A DNA stretch of 33,307 nucleotides. Origin: a virus. The DNA is taken from IMG/VR virus record IMGVR_UViG_3300027899_000004, positions 1 to 33,307 of that record; one strand, written 5' to 3'. This document shows, piece by piece, positions 10,467 to 28,856 of this stretch; positions within the stretch are counted from its first letter, which is position 1; the number at the start of each line of letters is the position of its first letter. Below the pieces are notes generated by a model. That model did no database searches, had not been told where the DNA came from, and was given only the letters and a program-made list of their open reading frames with translations. The position numbers were made by a program, and so were the translations under genes.

Positions 10467-10735
10467 TTTTGTTTCCTTAGCTTTTTTAGAGCAAGATTTA
10501 CTTTATCTATTTTTAAAGTGTTAAAGTAAATTCTTTGATTTAAAAATTTTAGTTCTTTTATAAGTTCTTCAACTTCAAGAGTTTTGTCTCTTTTAAATTT
10601 AATTAAAGATTGTTTTACTTCTTCATAATTTTCATTTTGTATTTCATTATTTAGAACATAATCTGACATTTGCTCAATTTCAAATTCAATAGGTTGATTA
10701 TTTAATACCATAAATTTTCTTATTTTTTCTTTCAT
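10463..10735 (-). CDS. 90-aa hypothetical helical protein
   Basis: A Lys/Glu-rich protein started at ATG 10735 (MKEKIRKFMVLNNQPIEFEI). A TTG two codons upstream is less likely, and ATG 10711 would give an 82-aa product with less overlap. The C-terminal 50 residues are a probable coiled coil (for example DKTLEVEELIKELKFLNQRI). It overlaps the end of the HNH gene by up to 38 bp and is coupled by ATGA to the next ORF. No domain is recognised. Confidence 0.6.
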   Translation of the reverse strand: MKEKIRKFMVLNNQPIEFEIEQMSDYVLNNEIQNENYEEVKQSLIKFKRDKTLEVEELIKELKFLNQRIYFNTLKIDKVNLALKKLRKQK

Positions 10736-11018
10736 GAGCAAATTGTTTATTATTAAGTTTGATTGTTTTAAATAAAGATAATTGTTTAAATCTCATTTTA
10801 TACCATGCAAATTCTAATTCATTATTATTTATAAAAATTTTATGTAAAAGGAAATGAGCTATAAAATGTTCTTCTGCTTTTAATTTAACAAGATTATCTG
10901 TTGAATTATCTCCACCCATACATCTTGGGATAATGTGATGAACTTCATAATAACCTGAGGAAAGGATGTCTGTCTTTCTTTTATTTATTAAATTTTCGTA
11001 GTGTTTTAAATAGTCCAT
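10698..11018 (-). CDS. HNH endonuclease (homing-type, short)
   Basis: A 106-aa protein with the HNH core YYEVHHIIPRCMGGDN at about residues 23-38, then NLVKLKAEEHFIAHFLL at 43-59. This is the pattern Y-E-x-H-H-I-I-P-R-x-x-G-G-x-N ... N-L-V-x-L ... E-H-x-x-A-H seen in free-standing phage homing HNH enzymes. Relatives are often longer and carry a C-terminal DNA-binding module. Here only a basic tail remains, so it may be a minimal or truncated form. It lies among small accessory genes, consistent with a mobile gene, and no strong Shine-Dalgarno is seen. It may also assist packaging, but it is not next to the terminase. Confidence 0.85.
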   Translation of the reverse strand: MDYLKHYENLINKRKTDILSSGYYEVHHIIPRCMGGDNSTDNLVKLKAEEHFIAHFLLHKIFINNNELEFAWYKMRFKQLSLFKTIKLNNKQFAHERKNKKIYGIK

Positions 11019-16599: not shown

Positions 16600-18939
16600 T
16601 CATGTTGATAATTTAATTGTAGTTATCTCATCATTAGCTAATCTAACAGAAGTTTTAGGAATTGCTTGAAATTGAACATTTTCTTTTGAAACATCTGAAT
16701 AAACGATAGAAGATTTAGATGTAGAATTGTTTTTTATTTCTGAAGAGACAAATGATTTATTTGAATTTCTTTGTTGCAAATCATTCCAAGAAACATACAG
16801 ATTTAAAGCTTCTGTATTAAAAGGAAGAATTCTTATACTATTTACTGTTAATTCAAGCGTAGCAGATGGAATTTCAACTATAGTAGAAGCTAAAATTGAA
16901 ATGAATGGATCAAAATTTGTAAAAGTTAAACTTGCAAAATCTACACTAACATTTTTATTATCAGAAACAATAATTTGAGGTATTGAACCTAATACATTTA
17001 AATTAACACTATCAACATCTAAAAATTTATCATCAGAAATAACAAGTTGAGGATCAAAATCTGTAAAAGTTAAACTTGAAACAGGAATTGCTACAAATTT
17101 ATTATCAGATAAAGATACAACTGGGTTATTTTTAGTAAGAGATAAAGAAGCAGAATTTACTTGAGCCCAAACATTATCTGTTTTACTTACAACTGGAGTT
17201 TGAGTAGATAAACTTACAGAAGTAGAATTTACACTAACTGAAACATTATTAACAATCGTAGGAGCAAAAGAACTTAAATTAAGATTTGCTACTGGAATTG
17301 TTATTGAAACATTATTAACAATAACTGGATCAAAATTAGTTAAACTTAAAGCAGCAACAGGAACTTGAATTATTTTATCAAGTGAAGCAGAGACATTAGG
17401 AACAAAAGTTGTAAGTGATAAGTTAGCAACAGGAGGCTGAACCCATACATTATTTGTTTTACTAACAACTGGATCAAATTTAGTTAAACTTAAAGAAGAA
17501 CTATTTGGTTGAACCCATACATTATCTGTTTTGCTTACAATAGGAGTTTGAGCAGATAAACTTAAAGTTGAAGCAGGAATTGAGACAGATTTATTATCTG
17601 TAGTTAAAACTAAAGGTAAATTAGCAGTAAGTGATAAACTTGCAGAATTAACTTGAGCCCATACATTATTTGTTTTACTTACAACAGGAGTATTAGGAGT
17701 AAGTGATAAAGTTGTTGTAGGAATTGAAACAGATTTATTATCTGATAAAGTTGCTGTAGGAACAAAAGTTGTAAGTGATAAGTTAGCAACAGGAGATTGA
17801 ACCCATACATTATTTGTTTTACTTACTACAGGAGTTTGAGCAGATAAAGTTAAACTTACAGAATTTACTTGAACCCATACATTATTTGTTTTACTTACTA
17901 CAGGAGTATTAGAAGTAAGTGATAAAGTAGTAGTAGGAATTGAAACAGATTTATTATCTGTAGCAATTACAACTGGGTTGTTATTAGTAAGTGATAATGT
18001 AGCAAGTGGAACTTGAGCCCATACATTATTTGTTTTGCTTACAACTGGTGTATTAGAAGTAAGAGATAAAGTAGCAAGTGGAACATTAATTTCACCACCA
18101 GCAACCACAATTGAAGGGTTATAAGTTGTAAAATAAGAAGCAATAAGAGGAACACTAATAACACCTGGAATAGTGTATTGCATTTCAACATTAATGTAAT
18201 CTAAATCAATTGTTGAAGTAGCAAAACCTCCACCAAGAACATAAGCACCTTCTGTATTGAATAAAGATGCATCTCTTGTTGAACATCCTAAATCTGTAAT
18301 TACATCTTTCCACCCATAAAAACTTTCTTCTGTCCAAACACTTGCACCATTTTTTAGATCAACTGCATAATAAATGTTAGCAGCATCAGCTATCCAAACT
18401 CTAATTGATTGATTAAGAGTTGTTGCTGAAACAGAAGTTCTTGCTTTAGCAGTTATTCTTATTTTTTGAACTTGAGCACCAGCAGGTACTTCAAATTGTG
18501 AAGCAAATAGAAAAGATAATGGGTTACTTTCCCAAAGTGATGTACCAGATGTTGTTGCATAAGTTCCATCATTTGTTGAAGCATTAGTATCATTTGTCCA
18601 AGCATTTTGCGCCCAGTTTGCTTCAACAACTCCAGTCCAATTATCTCTTTCTATCCAAAAGTTATCATTATCTTTAACAATTGGCCTTGATTTAGTTATA
18701 GTTGAAGTAGCAACAGGAACTGAAATTACAGGACTATTAATTACAACATTAACTACAGGAGTTTGACTAGTTATAGTTAAAGTCGCTGACGGAACAGAAA
18801 TAAGTCCAGTAGGTAAAGGAGCAGGAAGAAATAAAGAAGATGCTAAATCTTTTGCAGATCCATAAAAAAGGCCTGGCACTGATAAATCAGTGCCAGGCCT
18901 TGCTAGTACTTTAGTAAAATTTTCAGTTGGTGCAGCCAT
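16600..18939 (-). CDS. Repeat-rich tail fibre/appendage protein
   Basis: A 779-aa beta protein. Residues 1-25 form a short N-terminal segment, 40-85 hold two degenerate repeats, and 88-255 form a globular beta-sandwich domain (ERDNWTGVVEANWAQNAW ... DYINVEMQYT). From about 256 to 705 there are about 18 repeats of 22-24 residues of the form V-P-x-x-x-L-S-L-T-x-x-x-P-V-V-S-K-T-N-N-V-W. The end, about 710-779, is a distinct domain (NLYVSWNDLQQRNSNKSF). It lies between structural genes and the holin, as receptor-binding fibres do. The start is fixed by AAAGGTG 7-13 nt upstream. A hairpin with a T tract lies inside codons 13-24. DNA repeats at the unit level suggest recent expansion and length variation. 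Confidence 0.7.
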   Translation of the reverse strand: MAAPTENFTKVLARPGTDLSVPGLFYGSAKDLASSLFLPAPLPTGLISVPSATLTITSQTPVVNVVINSPVISVPVATSTITKSRPIVKDNDNFWIERDNWTGVVEANWAQNAWTNDTNASTNDGTYATTSGTSLWESNPLSFLFASQFEVPAGAQVQKIRITAKARTSVSATTLNQSIRVWIADAANIYYAVDLKNGASVWTEESFYGWKDVITDLGCSTRDASLFNTEGAYVLGGGFATSTIDLDYINVEMQYTIPGVISVPLIASYFTTYNPSIVVAGGEINVPLATLSLTSNTPVVSKTNNVWAQVPLATLSLTNNNPVVIATDNKSVSIPTTTLSLTSNTPVVSKTNNVWVQVNSVSLTLSAQTPVVSKTNNVWVQSPVANLSLTTFVPTATLSDNKSVSIPTTTLSLTPNTPVVSKTNNVWAQVNSASLSLTANLPLVLTTDNKSVSIPASTLSLSAQTPIVSKTDNVWVQPNSSSLSLTKFDPVVSKTNNVWVQPPVANLSLTTFVPNVSASLDKIIQVPVAALSLTNFDPVIVNNVSITIPVANLNLSSFAPTIVNNVSVSVNSTSVSLSTQTPVVSKTDNVWAQVNSASLSLTKNNPVVSLSDNKFVAIPVSSLTFTDFDPQLVISDDKFLDVDSVNLNVLGSIPQIIVSDNKNVSVDFASLTFTNFDPFISILASTIVEIPSATLELTVNSIRILPFNTEALNLYVSWNDLQQRNSNKSFVSSEIKNNSTSKSSIVYSDVSKENVQFQAIPKTSVRLANDEITTIKLST
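18868..18901 (-). terminator. Intragenic terminator-like hairpin in the 5' end of the fibre gene
   Basis: A 16-bp perfect stem (18868-18883 with 18886-18901) with a 2-nt loop, rich in GC (GGCCTGGCACTGAT) in an AT-rich genome. On the minus strand it is followed by T6. This is the form of a strong rho-independent terminator for the coding direction, about 38 nt after the ATG. It would cut transcription of the fibre, holin and endonuclease genes unless RNA polymerase is modified or a leading ribosome opens it. Confidence 0.8.
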
Positions 18940-20156: not shown

Positions 20157-20603
20157 TTAAGCTAATGAAAAGATACCAGAAGCATTCCATTGTAATGTTA
20201 ATGTATTACCAGAAGTTACAGTTACATCAGCAGGAGTTGTATCAAGTAAGATGTAAGCAATAACTGGGTTAACAATAGCATTTGCAGTTCCTGATTTATA
20301 GATAACTGCATACCGTGCTACAATAGATCCACTAGAAGCAGTCCATGTAGTATCTGCTGCATCAAATGTTACTGTACCACCTGATCTATTCCAAGTAACG
20401 GAACCTAAAGTAGCTCCACCTGAAGTATAACCATTTGCAGTAGATAGTTCATTAGTTACATCTGCAAAAACAGTATGAGTTGAAGCATTTGGTGTATAAG
20501 TTGAAGTAGTTAGAGCTACTTTAAAAGTATCTGTATCTAAATCAATAGTACCATCTGCAATGTATTCTTTCATTGAGTTGTATAAAGTTATTGATGCGGC
20601 CAT
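20157..20603 (-). CDS. Tail-cluster virion protein, paralogue 1
   Basis: A 148-aa protein with the common phage pattern D-T-F-K-V-A-L, Y-T-P, V-F-A-D-V-T-N-E-L-S-T-A-N-G-Y-T-S-G-G, then W-T-A-S, Y-A-V-I-Y, and D-T-T-P-A-D-V-T. It is a small beta protein, likely part of the tail tip or a fibre base. A second copy at 21936-22382 is about 83 percent identical by eye, so the gene was duplicated. Two other virion genes lie between the copies. Confidence 0.65.
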   Translation of the reverse strand: MAASITLYNSMKEYIADGTIDLDTDTFKVALTTSTYTPNASTHTVFADVTNELSTANGYTSGGATLGSVTWNRSGGTVTFDAADTTWTASSGSIVARYAVIYKSGTANAIVNPVIAYILLDTTPADVTVTSGNTLTLQWNASGIFSLA

Positions 20604-21935: not shown

Positions 21936-22382
21936 TTAACTAATGTCAAAAATACCAGAAGCATTCCATTGTAATGTTAAAGTATTACCTGATGAAGTAG
22001 TTACATCAGCAGGAGTTGTATCAAGTAAGATGTAAGCAATAAGTGGGTTAACAATAGCGTTTGCTGTTCCTGATTTATAGATAACTGCGTATCTTGCTAC
22101 AATAGATCCACCAGAAGCAGTCCATACTGTATCTGCTGCATCCCAAGTTGTAGTAGTTCCACTTCTATTAAAGGTTACTGAAGTAAGAGTAGCTCCACCA
22201 TTTGTATAGCCATTTGCAGTTGATAACTCATTAGTTATGTCTGCATAAACAGTATGAGATGAAGCAGAAGGTGTATAACTTGAACTAACTAAAGCTACTT
22301 TAAAAGTATCTGTATCTAAATCAATAGTACCATCTGCAATGTATTTTGAAAGTGAATTATAACGTGTGATTGATGCGGCCAT
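21936..22382 (-). CDS. Tail-cluster virion protein, paralogue 2
   Basis: A 148-aa protein of the same length as the product of 20157-20603 and about 83 percent identical to it by eye; differences cluster near residues 7-13, 32-49 and 67-91. The two DNA copies stay alike over nearly the whole gene, so the duplication is fairly recent or kept alike by conversion. Probably a tail tip or fibre-base subunit. Confidence 0.65.
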   Translation of the reverse strand: MAASITRYNSLSKYIADGTIDLDTDTFKVALVSSSYTPSASSHTVYADITNELSTANGYTNGGATLTSVTFNRSGTTTTWDAADTVWTASGGSIVARYAVIYKSGTANAIVNPLIAYILLDTTPADVTTSSGNTLTLQWNASGIFDIS

Positions 22383-22392
22383 TTAATTTCCT

Positions 22393-23199
22393 CTATGGAT
22401 TAATGATTGGTTCATAAGTTGAAATAGCAATACTGAACTTATCACTATTTATAAAATTATTTTTAGTTGAAATAATTGAAGGTATAGAATTATTTATAAT
22501 GAAGTTAAAGTTAGAAATTTCAACTAAATTATTTTCTGTTTTACTAACAACAGGAGTTTTCATTCCTAAAGAAATAGATGTCATTTTAGGAACTTGAACT
22601 AATTTAAGATCTTGGGAAATAACATTAACTTCTTTGAAAGATAAATTTAAATGTAAAGTATTGATTTCTATAAAATTATTTTTAGTTGAAATAATTGTAG
22701 GAATTTTTTCATCAACATTAATTGAAAAGTTAGGAACATTTACATAATTTATTGAACCTGAAACAAATGTTAAATTATGAACATACTCTTGATAAGGAAA
22801 TGCTTCTATTCTAATTGAATAATCACCTGAAACATTTGAAGTTAAAGAAACACTTCCTGTTGTTATTTGAGTATCTGAAATGTCTATTGAAGCATCTGGT
22901 GTTGCTATAGTGCATACAGCATTTGTAGGTAAAGAAGATCCAAATGTTAATGTATCTATTCCATCAGATTTTCCAACTGAATGGTTCCAATTAGAAGTTG
23001 GTTCAAATAGAGGTCTATCTGTTTTTGAACCAACAACATAGTAATGTTTCTTTTCATCAACATCTGTTTCTAAACTATAAGTTTCTCCAACACCAACATT
23101 TAAGTCTCTTAATTCATTACCATACTGATCATCATACTTAATAACTGATGAAATTTTTCCAGTTGTTGTATTATAAATTGCATACGTTACTATTGACAT
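22393..23199 (-). CDS. Tail fibre-type protein sharing the 24-aa repeat
   Basis: A 268-aa protein. Residues 1-85 form a small N-terminal domain like that of short tail fibres (Y-A-I-Y-N-T-T-T-G-K-I-S-S-V-I). Residues about 90-165 have an Ig- or PEGA-like beta pattern. The last 100 residues hold about four repeats like those of the 779-aa protein, with T-P-V-V-S-K-T-E-N-N, and I-I-S-T-K-N-N-F-I variants. It directly follows J, the classical place for a side or tip fibre. The shared repeat suggests exchange of repeat units between the two fibre genes. Confidence 0.6.
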   Translation of the reverse strand: MSIVTYAIYNTTTGKISSVIKYDDQYGNELRDLNVGVGETYSLETDVDEKKHYYVVGSKTDRPLFEPTSNWNHSVGKSDGIDTLTFGSSLPTNAVCTIATPDASIDISDTQITTGSVSLTSNVSGDYSIRIEAFPYQEYVHNLTFVSGSINYVNVPNFSINVDEKIPTIISTKNNFIEINTLHLNLSFKEVNVISQDLKLVQVPKMTSISLGMKTPVVSKTENNLVEISNFNFIINNSIPSIISTKNNFINSDKFSIAISTYEPIINP

Positions 23200-23202
23200 A
23201 AT

Positions 23203-26200
23203 TTACCTTAAAATTGTTATAGATGTTAATTGCCCAGCTTTAACAACAATTGAACCAGTAAATGATCCAGGCCCATTAGCTATAGCTGCTGTATTTTCTA
23301 TGTGAGTAGAAACAGTAGTTCCTTTATCAGCTTTTATGTTAAACAATAGTGGATAAGCATTTTCAACATTTGCTTGAGTCATTGGAATAGTTGCATACTT
23401 AACTATAGTAGTATAAACATTATTTAAAATGTAGTTTAAAGTAAATTTTACTAAAGCTGTTGCAGCAGTTGAAAAAGTTTTAGAAACTGTTGGGGCCCAA
23501 ATTATAGAAACATCGAATGGTCCATTAATGTTAGGAGGATTAGTTATTGTTGTTGAAGGTCCAGGGCCACTTGTAGTTGATGAAGATGTTTGAGTTCCAC
23601 CTATTGTTGCATTTGTATTGTTGTATCCTGAAGAAAATGAAGATCCAGAATTTACTATTCTAACATCATTTACAGAACCATACTTTAATTGAAGAGTATC
23701 AATTGTTGCATCAGTTATGTGAGCAGATCCACTAATTAGCTTGCCAATTTGGGCAGAATTTGTAATCAAAAGTCCAGAAGTTAATTGATTAACACCAATA
23801 GATTGAGCAATAATTTTATTACCATCAATAATAGGTTTGCCATTACTAACTAATAAATCATTTCCACCTTTATAAACAGCAACTATGTCATAACCAATTG
23901 ATAAAGCAAGTGAATAACTTGTAGTTGCGCTTAAAGTGGTACTTCCATACTGATAATAAATGTAAAGAATTCCAGATGTCCATGAAGCATTTCCAGAAGA
24001 AATGCTTTTTGAAGTATTAGTTCCACCGTAATTAGCATCAACTTGTCCTACAGACCAACTTACAGTATTTCCTGAAGTAGTAAAATCAAGTCCAGAGTAA
24101 ATGAATTTATACCCAGCATCAACAGAAGTTGTAGTATCTTGATAAGAAGAAGTAAAAGTTAAACCAGTTTTTCCAAAAGCATCATAAGCAGCTGCTTTAT
24201 AATAATAAGTAGTAGCAGGTTCAGACTTAATTGTAATTAATTTATCAGGACCATCATACACTAAATTTGCATCTGAAGGTGTAAATGTTGAAGAAGTAGT
24301 ATCTCTATGAACAACATACCCTGTTACATCTGTATCAGATCCACTATCAGCTAATCTAACATAAGAAGTATTATCAGTACTTTGAACTGTCATACTTATC
24401 ATTGCAGGTGCATCATTTGAAAAAGTTTTTGAAGCATAAGTAGTACTTTTTCTATTTATACCATCAACAGCATAAACTCTTACATTAAATGATCTCTGAA
24501 CTCCATTTTCTAAAACCATGTCATCATAGTAGTAAGTATAAGAAGTTATAGATTTATCAAGAAATTGACTTCTGATTAAAGTATCTGCTCCATTTCTAAT
24601 TTCAACATAGTATTGAGATGTTTTGTCATTGGGTAGATCAGCATTTCCAGGATTTTCTGTCCATTCAAATGATAAATCTTTAGTAGTAAAAGTAGTTCCT
24701 GTTGTTCCTAAAACAAATAGATCTGTAGGTGGTAAAATAGAAGTAATGTCTTCTTCTATTAAAACATCTACAGAAGCTGGTAAAGATACTTTACCATCAA
24801 CTCTAATTGCAACAACTTCAATTGTATAATTTCCTCTTGAAACATTTTTAATTGTAAAATCTTTTGAAGATACAGTTTCAAAAGCAGACCAAGGATTTAA
24901 TTCCCTATACCATCTAACTCTAAAATCAAGGACATTTGGATCATTATGTTCCCATCTTAATCTTAAATCAGCTTTTTTACCATAAATGTCATCATTATAA
25001 GTTATTGTTTGAAAAGTAAAATTTGAAGGTTGATCAACAGAAGGTGAAGAAAAAACATTTGTAGTTGGTTGAGCTTCTATTGTTATCCCTTGTTCAATAA
25101 TACTCCATTTATAAGGATCATAGATTTGAGCAGAAACATTATACTGTCCTTTTTCAGCTTCAGTAATAGAAATAATTTTAAACTTTCTTGGTTCTAAATG
25201 TCCTGTAGAATAACAGAAAAATTCTTTATTTGTATAAGAACCTGTAGGTAAAGCACTATCTATTGTTATAGTACTTACAGTTCCTGCTGCAGAAGTAATT
25301 GTTCTTTCAATTATTCCATCATTTGCTAAATTAGTAAAACCAATTTTATAAGTAAAACCACTATCTAAAGTAACTGGACATGAAAGAGTTATTGTTGTTC
25401 CTGAAACAGTATCTACTCTTCCTGCAAGATAAGTATTTTCAGATCCTATGTAGTCATTATCCATTATAGAAACAACATCACCAACTTGTAGATCAACAAT
25501 GTTTAATGAAAGTCCAAAAGAAACTAAATCACCTTGTTTAGCTTCAGAATACAAGATCCATCTACCCATACGTTGAGCATAACTTTCTGTTATACAACCA
25601 TAAGCAGTAAAATCTTCAACATTATAACCCCAAACTTCTTCACCATTACCATAATTTACAGTTGAAGTAGCTCCAGAAGTATTATTTTCTAAACTTATTG
25701 TTCTTGGTAAATAAAAATCATTTTTGTCATTGAATGTTATGTTAACCGCAGTAATTCTGTTAGAACTATCAACAGAAGAATAAGTAAAATTTCCTTCAAT
25801 TACATTAGCATTAGTTATAATTTTAGAAGATACTACAGGCCTATCTTGAATTAAAGAAATTTGATTTCCTGCTTGAACTAACATTGATCTCATGTTAGAA
25901 GCAATAGCATGGAGTAATTGCCAGGCATCTGATTGCATTTGAATTACACTATTGAAAGTATAACGTGCTTCAAACCCTCCTTTACCATCAGGAACCATTT
26001 CATTATTATAAACAGAGCAATTATAAAATTCCCATTTATCTACTAATAAAGTTTGATTTAAGTAAGTTGCTACACCATAACGATTATTTGTAAGTAAATC
26101 ATACAAGATCCAAGCAGTATCATCAGTCCAATCAGTTTTGAAAGTACCATCCCAAGATCCAGTAAAAACTCTTGTTATAGGATTATAATTAGTAGGAACT

Positions 26201-27519
26201 TGAACTTTAATACCTTGAACATCATAACCTCTTGTAGGAATTTGATTACCAACACTTTCTGCAGGAACTGTTAAACCAACTAAAGCAGTATTATCATAAG
26301 TTTCTGTTATTTCTTGTATTTCTGTCCATCTTGCAAATTTAAAAGTTGATCTTACAGAAGCAGCGCCATCATCTCCTGATAATCTTCTTACTCTAATGTC
26401 CCAGTTTGTTGCAGGAGCAGTTACTCTATGAGAGATTTCATAAGTAGTAGTTGTTTTTCCAGATAAAGTATGGGTTACTGCATTTGTCCAGGTTCCTGAA
26501 GAAGTAGGTTTTACATCAATTGCATAACTAACAGAATGTCCATTTAGATCACCATTTGAAGTATTTTGAGCCCATAGTCCATCTGGAAACATTAAAGTAA
26601 CACGTGCTGCATGAACTCCTGAACCTATTACTGTTTGAGTAGAAGGTGAAGCATAAGTAACATTTACACCTTTATTTTGTTCTGTTTCAATTTCAGAAAA
26701 ACCAGGAATGTAAGTTTGAGATGGAAGTCCAAATCTTTCATCATAAGTTACTTTATTAAAATTATAACTTCCATCTGAATTTAGCAAAGGTGTTCCATTT
26801 AGAAAGACACCTTTTGCTCCACCTACAATACCAACAATTTCACCTTCAGAGATTACTTCTAAAACTCTTACAACAGCAGATGATCTTAAAGTATTAGGAG
26901 CTTCTTGAGCTGCTCTTGCTTGACTATTTTTAGAACCACCACCACCACCATTATGAACTTTTATCCATGTAGCAGAACCAGTAGTAACTTCACAAGTTGT
27001 AGAAACAAAGTAAGTATGATGAGGAGTTACTTCAAAATTATAAACTTTAAAACCTTCTTCATAAGTTTCACAAGAAGTTCTTTTAATACTTTCAATAAGA
27101 ATTGTATTATTGTTTAGATCTGTTAAATAATCACCAACTTTAAATTCATGAGCCAATTTATGTTCATTTGTTTCATTATCATAAATTGCATGATTTCCTG
27201 TGCAAATAAGAATACCATCATTAAAATTAAATAAGTCATCTCTAATGTCAGGGTATTCATGAACGTTAACTTTAAGTATCATTGAATAATCAATTTCACC
27301 AAATCTATCATAAGAAAGAAGAATGTCTCCTTCTTTTAGATTTTCAATTGGTGTATAACCAGTTTGAGTTCTTACAAATGTTCCTGCAGGAAAACAAGAT
27401 CCACCACCACCTCCAGATCCAGTTATTTCTGGTTCTATGAATGTATGAGTGGCAGTATTATAATAATGAAAATCATAAAACCTATTTTCTACATTATGAA
27501 TTTTTTTAGATTTGCTCAA
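23203..27519 (-). CDS. J: Tail tip/host specificity protein J with embedded Hint domain
   Basis: A 1438-aa protein, central fibre and host-recognition unit. Residues 1-41 are a short leader ending in a Gly-rich stretch, 42-190 form a Hint domain, and 191-196 form a second Gly-rich linker. From 198 the lambda J-type sequence starts: A-R-A-A-Q-E-A-P-N-T-L-R-S, then V-L-E-V-I-S-E-G-E-I-V-G. The middle contains the tail-tip ring region (phage-tail_3-like). Fibronectin type III-like domains follow at about 850-1120. A J C-terminal-like part with KPIIDGNKIIAQSIGVNQL lies near 1230-1250, and the end is beta-rich. The frame is closed upstream by TGA two codons before a TTG, so TTG at 27519 is the likely start, overlapping the I gene by 14 bp. 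Without Hint the length would be near that of lambda J (1132 aa) plus an extension. Confidence 0.92.
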   Translation of the reverse strand: MSKSKKIHNVENRFYDFHYYNTATHTFIEPEITGSGGGGGSCFPAGTFVRTQTGYTPIENLKEGDILLSYDRFGEIDYSMILKVNVHEYPDIRDDLFNFNDGILICTGNHAIYDNETNEHKLAHEFKVGDYLTDLNNNTILIESIKRTSCETYEEGFKVYNFEVTPHHTYFVSTTCEVTTGSATWIKVHNGGGGGSKNSQARAAQEAPNTLRSSAVVRVLEVISEGEIVGIVGGAKGVFLNGTPLLNSDGSYNFNKVTYDERFGLPSQTYIPGFSEIETEQNKGVNVTYASPSTQTVIGSGVHAARVTLMFPDGLWAQNTSNGDLNGHSVSYAIDVKPTSSGTWTNAVTHTLSGKTTTTYEISHRVTAPATNWDIRVRRLSGDDGAASVRSTFKFARWTEIQEITETYDNTALVGLTVPAESVGNQIPTRGYDVQGIKVQVPTNYNPITRVFTGSWDGTFKTDWTDDTAWILYDLLTNNRYGVATYLNQTLLVDKWEFYNCSVYNNEMVPDGKGGFEARYTFNSVIQMQSDAWQLLHAIASNMRSMLVQAGNQISLIQDRPVVSSKIITNANVIEGNFTYSSVDSSNRITAVNITFNDKNDFYLPRTISLENNTSGATSTVNYGNGEEVWGYNVEDFTAYGCITESYAQRMGRWILYSEAKQGDLVSFGLSLNIVDLQVGDVVSIMDNDYIGSENTYLAGRVDTVSGTTITLSCPVTLDSGFTYKIGFTNLANDGIIERTITSAAGTVSTITIDSALPTGSYTNKEFFCYSTGHLEPRKFKIISITEAEKGQYNVSAQIYDPYKWSIIEQGITIEAQPTTNVFSSPSVDQPSNFTFQTITYNDDIYGKKADLRLRWEHNDPNVLDFRVRWYRELNPWSAFETVSSKDFTIKNVSRGNYTIEVVAIRVDGKVSLPASVDVLIEEDITSILPPTDLFVLGTTGTTFTTKDLSFEWTENPGNADLPNDKTSQYYVEIRNGADTLIRSQFLDKSITSYTYYYDDMVLENGVQRSFNVRVYAVDGINRKSTTYASKTFSNDAPAMISMTVQSTDNTSYVRLADSGSDTDVTGYVVHRDTTSSTFTPSDANLVYDGPDKLITIKSEPATTYYYKAAAYDAFGKTGLTFTSSYQDTTTSVDAGYKFIYSGLDFTTSGNTVSWSVGQVDANYGGTNTSKSISSGNASWTSGILYIYYQYGSTTLSATTSYSLALSIGYDIVAVYKGGNDLLVSNGKPIIDGNKIIAQSIGVNQLTSGLLITNSAQIGKLISGSAHITDATIDTLQLKYGSVNDVRIVNSGSSFSSGYNNTNATIGGTQTSSSTTSGPGPSTTITNPPNINGPFDVSIIWAPTVSKTFSTAATALVKFTLNYILNNVYTTIVKYATIPMTQANVENAYPLLFNIKADKGTTVSTHIENTAAIANGPGSFTGSIVVKAGQLTSITILR
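26932..26949 (-). repeat. Gly5-Ser linker after the Hint domain
   Basis: Encodes G-G-G-G-G-S at J residues 191-196. On the DNA level 16 of 18 bases equal the linker at 27397-27414 on the other side of the Hint domain. Confidence 0.8.
26950..27396 (-). other. Hint domain (bacterial intein-like, type A-like) within J
   Basis: J residues 42-190 (149 aa). Block A is CFPAGTFVRTQTGYTPIENL with Cys42 as first residue. Block B is L-I-C-T-G-N-H with Thr107 and His110 (TxxH). Block F is VYNFEVTPHHTYFVS (159-173). Block G is WIKVHN, with His189 and Asn190. No homing endonuclease is present. All residues for an N-S acyl shift and Asn cyclisation are there, but Gly191 follows Asn instead of Cys, Ser or Thr. 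This is the mark of bacterial intein-like domains that cleave rather than cleanly splice. Confidence 0.9.
27397..27414 (-). repeat. Gly5-Ser linker before the Hint domain
   Basis: Encodes G-G-G-G-G-S at J residues 36-41, directly before Cys42. Partner of 26932-26949; the two linkers differ at two third-codon positions only. Confidence 0.8.
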
Positions 27520-28132
27520 TTGTCATACCTGCTGAGATTACTGTTGAACCTGTTAAATGACGTCCATAAACAAGAGGAACTGGACCACCTTGTTCTACTG
27601 TATTAACTATTCCATTGAAAAGAAATGAAGGCCTTTGTTGAACTTCTGCATTTTGATAATTTCCTATTTTAGGAGGTTTAGACATTAATTGCATAGCTCC
27701 ACCCATAATTTGACCTAAACCAGCAGAAATTAAACCACCTGCAACCATACCACCAATACCTGTCCATCCAAAAAATACACCTACTACAATACCTACAATA
27801 ATTAAAACAACTCCTAAAATAATTTTACCAATACCATTTCCTGACCCAGCTAATAGTGGGAAAACATGAATTTCTTGTTCATTTACTACCATTTCAACTT
27901 CTTCAGAACTTTTGAAATTATCTTCTTCAATAGGTTTATCTTTTTTTGTTATTCTTTTTCCTGTAGTTACATGCCACATTCCATTTTTTATTGTTTCTTT
28001 AAATTCATGTCCAAATCTGCAACATAAACCTTTGAATACATCTTGAAGATTATAACCATAAATTGTAATTGCTTTCTTTCCGTATTTCTTTCCTAAGTTT
28101 CCATGTAAGTAAATTTTATGTTCTTTATCCAT
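27506..28132 (-). CDS. I: Tail assembly protein I (lambda gpI-like)
   Basis: A 208-aa protein of the lambda tail assembly I family. It has an N-terminal ubiquitin-like beta-grasp region (K-I-Y-L-H-G-N-L-G-K-K-Y-G near 6-18). A Gly-rich hydrophobic region at about 100-150 (GNGIGKIILGVVLIIVGIVV) is predicted as a membrane-like segment, and the C-terminus carries V-P-L-V-Y-G-R, then G-S-x-V-I-S-A-G (about 180-202), the usual end of gpI. It acts with K, L and J in building the tail tip. It overlaps K by 8 bp and J by 14 bp. Confidence 0.9.
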   Translation of the reverse strand: MDKEHKIYLHGNLGKKYGKKAITIYGYNLQDVFKGLCCRFGHEFKETIKNGMWHVTTGKRITKKDKPIEEDNFKSSEEVEMVVNEQEIHVFPLLAGSGNGIGKIILGVVLIIVGIVVGVFFGWTGIGGMVAGGLISAGLGQIMGGAMQLMSKPPKIGNYQNAEVQQRPSFLFNGIVNTVEQGGPVPLVYGRHLTGSTVISAGMTIEQI

Positions 28133-28856
28133 TAATAAGATCCTTATGTCTTAAAACTTTTGATAACTGTCTTTGCCATTTTGAAATAGTATCTTCACAA
28201 CTTTTTCTGTTATAAAGATGATGAATAAATTTATTATCACTAATTACAATACCGATGTGATTTATAGTTTTTGAGGCAATAGTGAACAAAAGAATGTCTC
28301 CTTCTTTCATTTCTTCTTTTTTAATTTCTACTAAACCTAAATCTTTAAAGTGATGATGAATGTAATGAGGGTTCCATTCATACCAATTAGGAGGACGTGG
28401 GTGATTTCCAAAATCAATGTTATAATTTAATTTATAATAATCTCTTGCTATAGTAAAACAATCATAAACATAACTAACATACTCTCTATTTAGTAAATCT
28501 GAAACCTCTTCTGTTCCAAACCATAAAATGTCTGTTAAATTTTCACCATCTGTATGAACAATTCCAAAAGGAACTTGAGCATTATCCTGAGATAGAGTAT
28601 CTTCATGTGAAGGTGTTCTGGGATCATAGCCAATAGGAACAGAATTCATAGTATGTGAATGAATTATAGCATAATCTTTGTCATAGTATTTTTCACTTTC
28701 TTTTAGTGAAATAGAAAAATAATTCACAGGATCATCAGCTAAATTGTCTGATGGAATGAATTTATTATCTATAAGAAAGCCACATGCTTCTTGAGGATAA
28801 CAACTTAAAACATGAGATTTAAATTCATCATAATTATCAATTGTAAATTTATTCAT
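28125..28856 (-). CDS. K: Tail assembly protein K: JAB/MPN plus NlpC/P60 domains
   Basis: A 243-aa protein with two peptidase-type domains. The first 110 residues are a JAMM/MPN domain: Glu23 in PQEACGF, HSH at 66-68, and S83-x-x-D86. The spacing between HSH and Ser (14 residues) is longer than the usual form. Residues 120-240 are an NlpC/P60 domain: Y-D-C-F-T-I-A-R-D with Cys133, and I-N-H-I-G-I-V with His200. In lambda K these domains are thought to process tail-tip proteins or open peptidoglycan during entry. It lies between L and I. It is the only peptidoglycan hydrolase-like protein found here. Confidence 0.93.
   Translation of the reverse strand: MNKFTIDNYDEFKSHVLSCYPQEACGFLIDNKFIPSDNLADDPVNYFSISLKESEKYYDKDYAIIHSHTMNSVPIGYDPRTPSHEDTLSQDNAQVPFGIVHTDGENLTDILWFGTEEVSDLLNREYVSYVYDCFTIARDYYKLNYNIDFGNHPRPPNWYEWNPHYIHHHFKDLGLVEIKKEEMKEGDILLFTIASKTINHIGIVISDNKFIHHLYNRKSCEDTISKWQRQLSKVLRHKDLING

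What the first reader, a model, noticed from the sequence alone, without database searches (positions are those of the whole stretch)
23203..27519. Self-processing Hint (intein-like) domain embedded in the tail-tip protein J
Residues 42-190 of J form a complete 149-aa Hint domain: Cys42 block A, T-G-N-H block B, a full block F, and terminal His-Asn. The residue after Asn190 is Gly, so canonical splicing with a +1 nucleophile is not expected. Known bacterial intein-like domains of this kind cleave at their ends. If active, J would lose its first 190 residues or expose a thioester at Ser41/Cys42 that an amine or thiol could attack. In a receptor-binding tail tip this could time maturation or make a covalent bond to a partner or the host surface. 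The last idea is speculation.
Basis: partly seen in the sequence, partly recalled or inferred. Interest (0 to 1): 0.85.

Follow-up and report, generated by a model that had tools for sequence, protein, structure and literature searches.

The report
Self-cutting domain in phage tail-tip protein
A phage tail-tip protein carries, near its start, a complete intein-like domain that very probably cuts itself out after the protein is made; the same kind of domain sits at matching glycine-rich joints of two neighbouring tail-tip proteins in many uncultured phages, which I could not find described before.

Summary
Residues 42-190 of a lambda-type J protein (window 23203-27519, minus strand, TTG start) are a complete Hint domain. 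It scores above the Pfam PT-HINT cut-off, and a confident AlphaFold model matches a solved bacterial intein-like (BIL) domain best (2LWY, 1.9 A). All chemistry residues are present: Cys42, TGNH, His-Asn190. It is not a one-off. Thirty-five non-redundant relatives keep Cys1 and the block-B TxNH (35/35) and the terminal His-Asn (34/35). Nearly all lie in the N-terminal Gly-rich tail of J, and some lie in the neighbouring tail protein I, exactly between its ubiquitin-like domain and its plug. The domain is under the same purifying selection as the J core and has been co-inherited with J within the window's clade.

The most likely function is self-removal of a precursor segment: Asn cyclisation cuts at N190|G191, and the thioester at S41/C42 hydrolyses or is re-joined by Gly191, as in type A BILs. 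The cut J would begin where lambda J naturally begins. Activity itself is untested. It is a new variant of a known kind.

The parts
23203..27519 (-). J protein precursor, 1438 aa, TTG start
   Evidence: phrog_31 E 2e-195, phrog_1727, phrog_2589; lambda_TipJ NF049904, E 9.6e-104, below its curated cut-off
27397..27519 (-). N-terminal peptide (N-extein), residues 1-41, ending ...EITGSGGGGGS
   Evidence: less conserved than the Hint (61% identity, dN/dS 0.32)
26950..27396 (-). Hint / type A BIL-like domain, residues 42-190
27394..27396 (-). Cys42, N-terminal nucleophile (intein position 1)
   Evidence: invariant 35/35, also in the 18 sequences caught only through the VHN pattern
27190..27201 (-). 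block B TGNH, residues 107-110
   Evidence: T, N, H invariant 35/35
26950..26955 (-). terminal His189-Asn190 (block G)
   Evidence: HN in 34/35, SN in one
26929..26949 (-). Gly-rich start of the C-extein, residues 191-197 (GGGGGSK); lambda gpJ residue 4 aligns with residue 197
23206..26949 (-). predicted mature J, residues 191-1438
27397..27415 (-). left copy of a 19-nt direct repeat flanking the Hint (encodes GGGGGS)
   Evidence: 89% identity to the right copy; 17-nt exact in L042
26932..26950 (-). right copy of the direct repeat
27506..28132 (-). tail assembly protein I (ubiquitin-like domain plus plug), tail ...HVFPLLAGSGNG...; no Hint here, but relatives carry it at this joint
   Evidence: phrog_32 E 1.6e-41
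28125..28856 (-). tail protein K, JAMM-like motif plus NlpC/P60
   Evidence: phrog_30, NLPC_P60 E 2.7e-10; JAMM residues read from the sequence

Best explanation
J is made as a precursor with a self-processing type A BIL-like Hint in its N-terminal Gly-rich tail. Cys42 attacks the Ser41 carbonyl and makes a thioester, and Asn190 cyclises and breaks the bond to Gly191. The Hint leaves. The main product is J starting at Gly191, which is where lambda-type J proteins naturally start. The N-terminal peptide is lost by thioester hydrolysis or, in a fraction of molecules, re-joined by the free amine of Gly191 to give ...GSGGGGGS-GGGGGSK.... Shown here: the fold, the catalytic residues, their conservation, purifying selection, co-inheritance with J in the window's clade, and the position. 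Inferred: that the reactions happen, their balance, and that they serve tail-tip assembly, for example by keeping the J N-terminus blocked until it has folded.
For: Complete active-site set with high-confidence BIL fold. The closest structure, 2LWY (C. thermocellum BIL), belongs to a class described as cutting and splicing without a +1 nucleophile. C1, TxNH and HN are kept at about 30-40% overall identity; 18 of the 35 sequences were caught only through the VHN pattern and all keep Cys1, and 6 of 7 caught only through the Cys pattern keep HN. Hint dN/dS 0.13 against 0.15 for the J core and 0.32 for the N-peptide. A 10-sequence clade holding the window is all-Hint and the same in the J-core tree and the Hint tree. 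Lambda J residue 4 aligns with window residue 197, so a cut at 190|191 yields a lambda-like N-terminus. Hint-free relative L010 reads IAGSGGGGGKGGGGGSRAAQEAPNTL, like a spliced or trimmed window J.
Against: No biochemical or proteomic evidence exists. All 41 J relatives found through the J core, without selecting for the Hint, lack it, so the processing is not needed for J function in general. One relative (L117) has Ser in place of the penultimate His. Conservation of C1 and HN is partly built into the search patterns.
Confidence: 0.66

Rival explanations
1. The Hint is mainly a splicing element (mini-intein without +1 nucleophile): it excises and re-joins the flanks, so the mature protein keeps the N-peptide and a continuous Gly-rich tail.
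For: Both ends, not only Asn, are strictly conserved. The joined product would resemble Hint-free J tails. Gly-Gly flanks are unhindered for aminolysis (chemistry, inference). Some relatives (L146, L149) carry Thr at +1, a canonical nucleophile. 2LWY belongs to a class that can splice.
Against: The N-peptide is poorly conserved in length and sequence. Review literature says cleavage dominates in type A BILs. +1 is Gly or Lys in 34 of 35 and Cys, Ser or Thr in none of that set.
Confidence: 0.2
2. The Hint is a mobile or drifting passenger that lands in Gly-rich repeats of tail genes and is tolerated there; it is lost and gained by recombination between GGN repeats, and its activity gives the phage nothing beyond self-removal.
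For: 19-nt direct repeats flank it (17-nt exact in L042). It lies in at least three Gly-rich contexts: J, I, and a Gly-rich tail fibre (L100). The J-core tree needs 7 changes of presence, at least 3 forced by starred branches. Most J proteins lack it.
Against: No endonuclease domain is seen. It is retained as a whole clade with the J tree, and Hint and J-core distances correlate (Mantel r 0.42, 0 of 2000 permutations). The site is almost always the same tail motif rather than any Gly run.
Confidence: 0.22
3. The thioester is used to transfer the N-terminal peptide (or, in protein I, the ubiquitin-like domain) to a lysine or other amine of a tail-tip partner, as the Tetrahymena BUBL BIL2 does, making a covalent cross-link.
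For: The second-best structural match is BUBL1 BIL2, which makes isopeptide bonds to lysine without ATP (PMC8616854). In protein I the layout is ubiquitin-like domain - Gly run - Hint. A Lys in the Gly-rich J tail is nearly invariant.
Against: That Lys is also present in Hint-free J proteins, so it need not be an acceptor. The BIL2 zinc ligand H125 aligns with Asn161 here (alignment). Nothing shows transfer.
Confidence: 0.07

Closest known systems
Type A bacterial intein-like (BIL) domains, e.g. C. thermocellum BIL (PDB 2LWY)
   Same: Hint fold at 1.9 A over 151 columns, Cys1, TxxH, terminal His-Asn, no Cys/Ser/Thr at +1, about 130-150 aa, no endonuclease
   Different: Sits in the N-terminal tail of a conserved phage tail-hub protein, and at the ubiquitin-like/plug joint of protein I, rather than in hypervariable bacterial proteins
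PT-HINT (PF07591) of polymorphic toxins
   Same: Best Pfam match, in 41 of 43 relatives
   Different: In toxins it sits just before a C-terminal toxin (PMC3482391); here it sits at the front of a structural protein and no toxin is present
BUBL BIL2 of Tetrahymena (6Y75, 6TMM)
   Same: Second-best fold match; ubiquitin-like domain upstream of a BIL, as in phage protein I relatives; His69-equivalent H110 and His48-equivalent H87 conserved
   Different: In J there is no ubiquitin-like domain before the Hint; zinc ligand His125 is Asn161
Phage inteins (TerL, RNR, DnaB, dCTP deaminase)
   Same: Hint superfamily, phage-encoded
   Different: Those lie in conserved enzymes and as a rule have a +1 nucleophile, often with an endonuclease; this one lies in a flexible tail with Gly at +1
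Lambda gpJ / T1 gp33 / F2-pyocin tail fibre
   Same: J residues 197 onward align with lambda gpJ from residue 4
   Different: Those lack the 190-residue N-terminal extension

Membership tests
Type A BIL domain | Hint (hedgehog/intein) fold | tested here: met
   AlphaFold pLDDT about 90-97, Foldseek 2LWY E 8.5e-11
Type A BIL domain | Cys at position 1 and TxxH block B | tested here: met
   C42, T107-G-N-H110; 35/35 in relatives
Type A BIL domain | C-terminal His-Asn | tested here: met
   H189-N190; 34/35
Type A BIL domain | no Cys/Ser/Thr nucleophile at +1 | tested here: met
   Gly191; Gly or Lys in 34/35 and a gap in one. Thr in the more distant L146/L149
Type A BIL domain | self-cleavage and/or splicing activity | not testable with these tools
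   needs expression of the protein
Type A BIL domain | location in hypervariable regions of non-conserved proteins | tested here: not met
   the host protein J is conserved (phrog_31 E 2e-195), although the insertion point is a variable tail. This is a descriptive trait in the literature, so I call it BIL-like rather than a plain member
Canonical (class 1) intein | +1 Cys/Ser/Thr | tested here: not met
   Gly191
Canonical (class 1) intein | insertion in a conserved catalytic site, often with homing endonuclease | tested here: not met
   Gly-rich N-terminal tail; no endonuclease domain in the Pfam scan
PT-HINT (PF07591) | score above the curated cut-off | tested here: met
   40.8 bits against 27.7
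BUBL locus | ubiquitin-like domain directly before the BIL | tested here: not met
   J N-peptide is only 41 aa; met only in protein I relatives such as L062 and L084
Lambda-type tail tip protein J | HDII/FNIII-A/Phage-tail_3 core | tested here: met
   PF24801, PF13550; lambda gpJ E 3.3e-68 over 365 residues

The most novel reading that the evidence does not exclude
Tail-tip proteins I and J share a ubiquitin-tail-like joint, [IV]-h-P-h-[IVL]-x-G-[AS]-[GK], that is a processing site. In many phages a Hint has been captured at this joint in J or in I, so that the tail tip uses intein-type thioester chemistry (release, ligation or lysine transfer as in ciliate BUBL) at a ubiquitin-like C-terminus during tail assembly.
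Probability: 0.15. Interest if true: 0.86.

Novelty: new variant of a known kind. Interest (0 to 1): 0.62.

Why it matters
If active, this is a phage structural protein that matures by intein-type self-processing rather than by a protease, and it recurs at matching joints of two adjacent tail-tip proteins. It gives a clean handle on two open points: what the N-terminal Gly-rich tail of J does, and whether the ubiquitin-like domain of protein I is cut from its plug, as predicted in 2006 for the JAB peptidase of K. It would also give new compact Hint domains that work between Gly-rich linkers, which are useful as protein-ligation tools.

Tried and rejected
Single-sequence AlphaFold of J 1-260 failed (pLDDT 32); the 43-row alignment gave the usable model. 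I expected the two zinc ligands of BUBL BIL2 (H48, H125) to be conserved; counting along the alignment, only the H48 equivalent (H87) is, and the H125 position is Asn161, so zinc control is not claimed. I considered that the Hint replaces the JAMM peptidase of K; rejected, because the JAMM-like motif is intact in the window and a (borderline) JAB hit is present in L062 (and sequence). Cultured phages: three of the tblastn searches gave only hits annotated as helicase, terminase, a P-loop ATPase or hypothetical protein, and the first (the window's own Hint) only Ruminococcus-phage and unannotated hits; no J-Hint was recognised among 50,697 phage records, but I did not inspect the Ruminococcus phage loci further. 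One viral scan failed because the alignment had no conserved stretch. One genome search failed for lack of a handle, and one repeat finder for the strand given. Literature searches found no report of a Hint in J or I, but only open-access papers are held.

Full report
What is there. The window is a 33,307-base virus record of unknown host. On its minus strand lies a lambda-type tail operon: tape measure, minor tail proteins, K (JAMM-like plus NlpC/P60), I, and J. J (23203-27519) starts with TTG at 27519; an in-frame TGA lies just upstream, so TTG is the only ordinary start. Residues 42-190 are a Hint domain; from residue 185 onward the protein is central tail fibre J, phrog_31, E 2e-195.

Is the fold real? 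PT-HINT scores 40.8 bits against a cut-off of 27.7. AlphaFold2 on an alignment of 43 natural relatives gives pLDDT about 90-97 across 41-190, with the peptides on both sides of low confidence. Foldseek against the PDB ranks 2LWY, a bacterial intein-like domain of Clostridium thermocellum, first (E 8.5e-11, target TM 0.86, rmsd 1.9 A), and Tetrahymena BUBL1 BIL2 next. A profile search by sequence gives the same two families (2LWY E 2.9e-23, BIL2 5e-20).

How widespread is it? Scans of viral contigs with the J front end, with the Hint alone, and with Hint-internal patterns gave over a hundred relatives (the best 80 kept in the last two). Nearly all of the close ones are J proteins with the Hint in the N-terminal Gly-rich tail. 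A second group (L062, L084, L161, L163, L166, L170, L171 and kin) carries it in tail assembly protein I: in L062 and L084 phrog_32 matches residues 1-114 before the Hint, and a second tail-protein match covers the plug after it. One more is in a Gly-rich tail fibre (L100). Prophage-like copies exist in Leptolyngbya (L121, L122), but only 1 of 292 cyanobacterial genomes has a full J-Hint match, and no J-Hint was recognised in 50,697 phage records. All 41 J proteins found through the J core are Hint-free, so the domain is facultative.

Is it kept active? In 35 non-redundant Hints, Cys1 is 35/35, block-B T, N and H are 35/35, block-F His is 33/35, and the last two residues are HN in 34/35. The -1 residue is Gly in 31, and +1 is Gly in 27 and Lys in 7. 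The search patterns included parts of both ends, so I split the set: 18 found only through the VHN pattern all keep Cys1, and 6 of 7 found only through the Cys pattern keep HN. Between the window and L042, dN/dS is 0.13 for the Hint, 0.15 for J residues 191-950 and 0.32 for the N-peptide. The window's clade of 10 J proteins is the same in the J-core tree (98*) and the Hint tree (99/95*). Distances in the two trees correlate (Mantel r 0.42, 0 of 2000 permutations). So within this clade the Hint has passed down with J for long enough to diverge to about 40% identity. Over the wider tree it is patchy: 7 changes, at least 3 forced by well-supported branches.

Where exactly does it sit? In the window, GGGGGS stands on both sides of the Hint, encoded by 19-nt direct repeats that are 89% identical; L042 has a 17-nt exact repeat. 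The Hint-free relative L010 reads IAGSGGGGGKGGGGGSRAAQEAPNTL at this place. Lambda gpJ residue 4 aligns with window residue 197. A cut after Asn190 would therefore make a J that starts within a few residues of where lambda J starts. Across J proteins the peptide before the Gly run follows h-[P/x]-h-[IV]-x-G-[SA]-[GK]; position -2 is Ile or Val in 59 of 74, against a background of 10.6%. It resembles the tail of the ubiquitin-like domain of protein I, [IV]-h-P-h-[IVL]-x-G-[AS]-[GK]. These rows are related and the motifs were anchored on Gly, so the p-value printed there should not be taken at face value; the resemblance is the point. A 2006 analysis predicted that the JAB peptidase of K cuts protein I at the last Gly of that domain (PMC1779556), and in the lambda virion only gpI 135-223 was modelled (PMC10721106).

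Mechanism. The best-supported reading is intein-type self-processing: thioester at Ser41-Cys42, Asn190 cyclisation, loss of the Hint, and either loss of the 41-residue peptide or its re-joining by Gly191. Reviews state that type A BILs can splice this way without a +1 nucleophile, with cleavage dominating (PMC4031507); another review says they cannot ligate (PMC7765530), and I give more weight to the first, which cites the primary trans-splicing work. A host-surface bond is unlikely: in lambda the N-terminal part of J (HDII) forms the hub ring with gpL around the gpI plug, and the receptor-binding part is at the C-terminal end. What is shown here is sequence, predicted fold and evolution; no reaction has been observed.

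What could still be more unusual. Ciliate BUBL BIL2, the second-best structural match, transfers a ubiquitin-like domain to lysine without ATP (PMC8616854). The protein I relatives have the same order, ubiquitin-like domain - Gly run - Hint. The conserved Lys in the J tail could be an acceptor, but it is also present in J proteins without a Hint, so I give transfer low odds.

Verdict. The domain is real, conserved and recurrent. It is a new setting for a known kind of self-processing domain, with an unusual link to ubiquitin-like tail proteins; activity is untested.

Noticed in passing
L062 4638-5957; L084 3688-4992; L161, L163, L166, L170, L171: Hint inserted in tail assembly protein I exactly between the ubiquitin-like domain (phrog_32 positions 4-98) and the plug, after PVLEGAGGGG.
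   Followed up: partly
L084 4994-9436 (J residues about 714-846): A second, different Hint (CFAKGT...VHNRSYV) lies inside J of the same phage whose protein I already carries one.
   Followed up: partly
J N-termini and protein I across loci: The J tail before the Gly run resembles the C-terminal tail of the ubiquitin-like domain of protein I; possibly a shared processing or docking motif.
   Followed up: partly
L146, L149: J-Hints with Thr at +1 (HNTGSG), which could splice by the canonical route; the RGAGGGGG motif appears both before and after the Hint. L120 and L154 show a similar duplicated tail motif with Gly at +1.
   Followed up: partly
L117: J-Hint with Ser in place of the penultimate His (LSN), a natural variant to test Asn cyclisation.
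   Followed up: no
L061 3549-7280: J-Hint with an insert of about 60 residues in the middle of the domain.
   Followed up: no
L074 4698-6908: Two tandem Hints in a broken tape-measure-like reading frame of an 81-kb phage contig, each followed by HNKGG.
   Followed up: no
L244 237-5498, L245 285-5498, L238 1224-7439: Proteins I and J fused in one polypeptide, without a Hint at the joint.
   Followed up: partly
window 20157-20603 and 21936-22382: Two close paralogues (148 aa each) of a tail-region gene lie about 1.3 kb apart; a duplicated gene.
   Followed up: no
window 16600-18939 and 22393-23199: Repeats of the type SLSLTxNTPVVSKTNNVWVQ in a 779-aa protein, echoed in the gene right after J; probably tail-fibre repeats.
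   Followed up: no
window 10698-11018: Small HNH-endonuclease-like ORF (EVHHIIPRCMGGDNSTDNLVKL) in the variable region, far from J.
   Followed up: no
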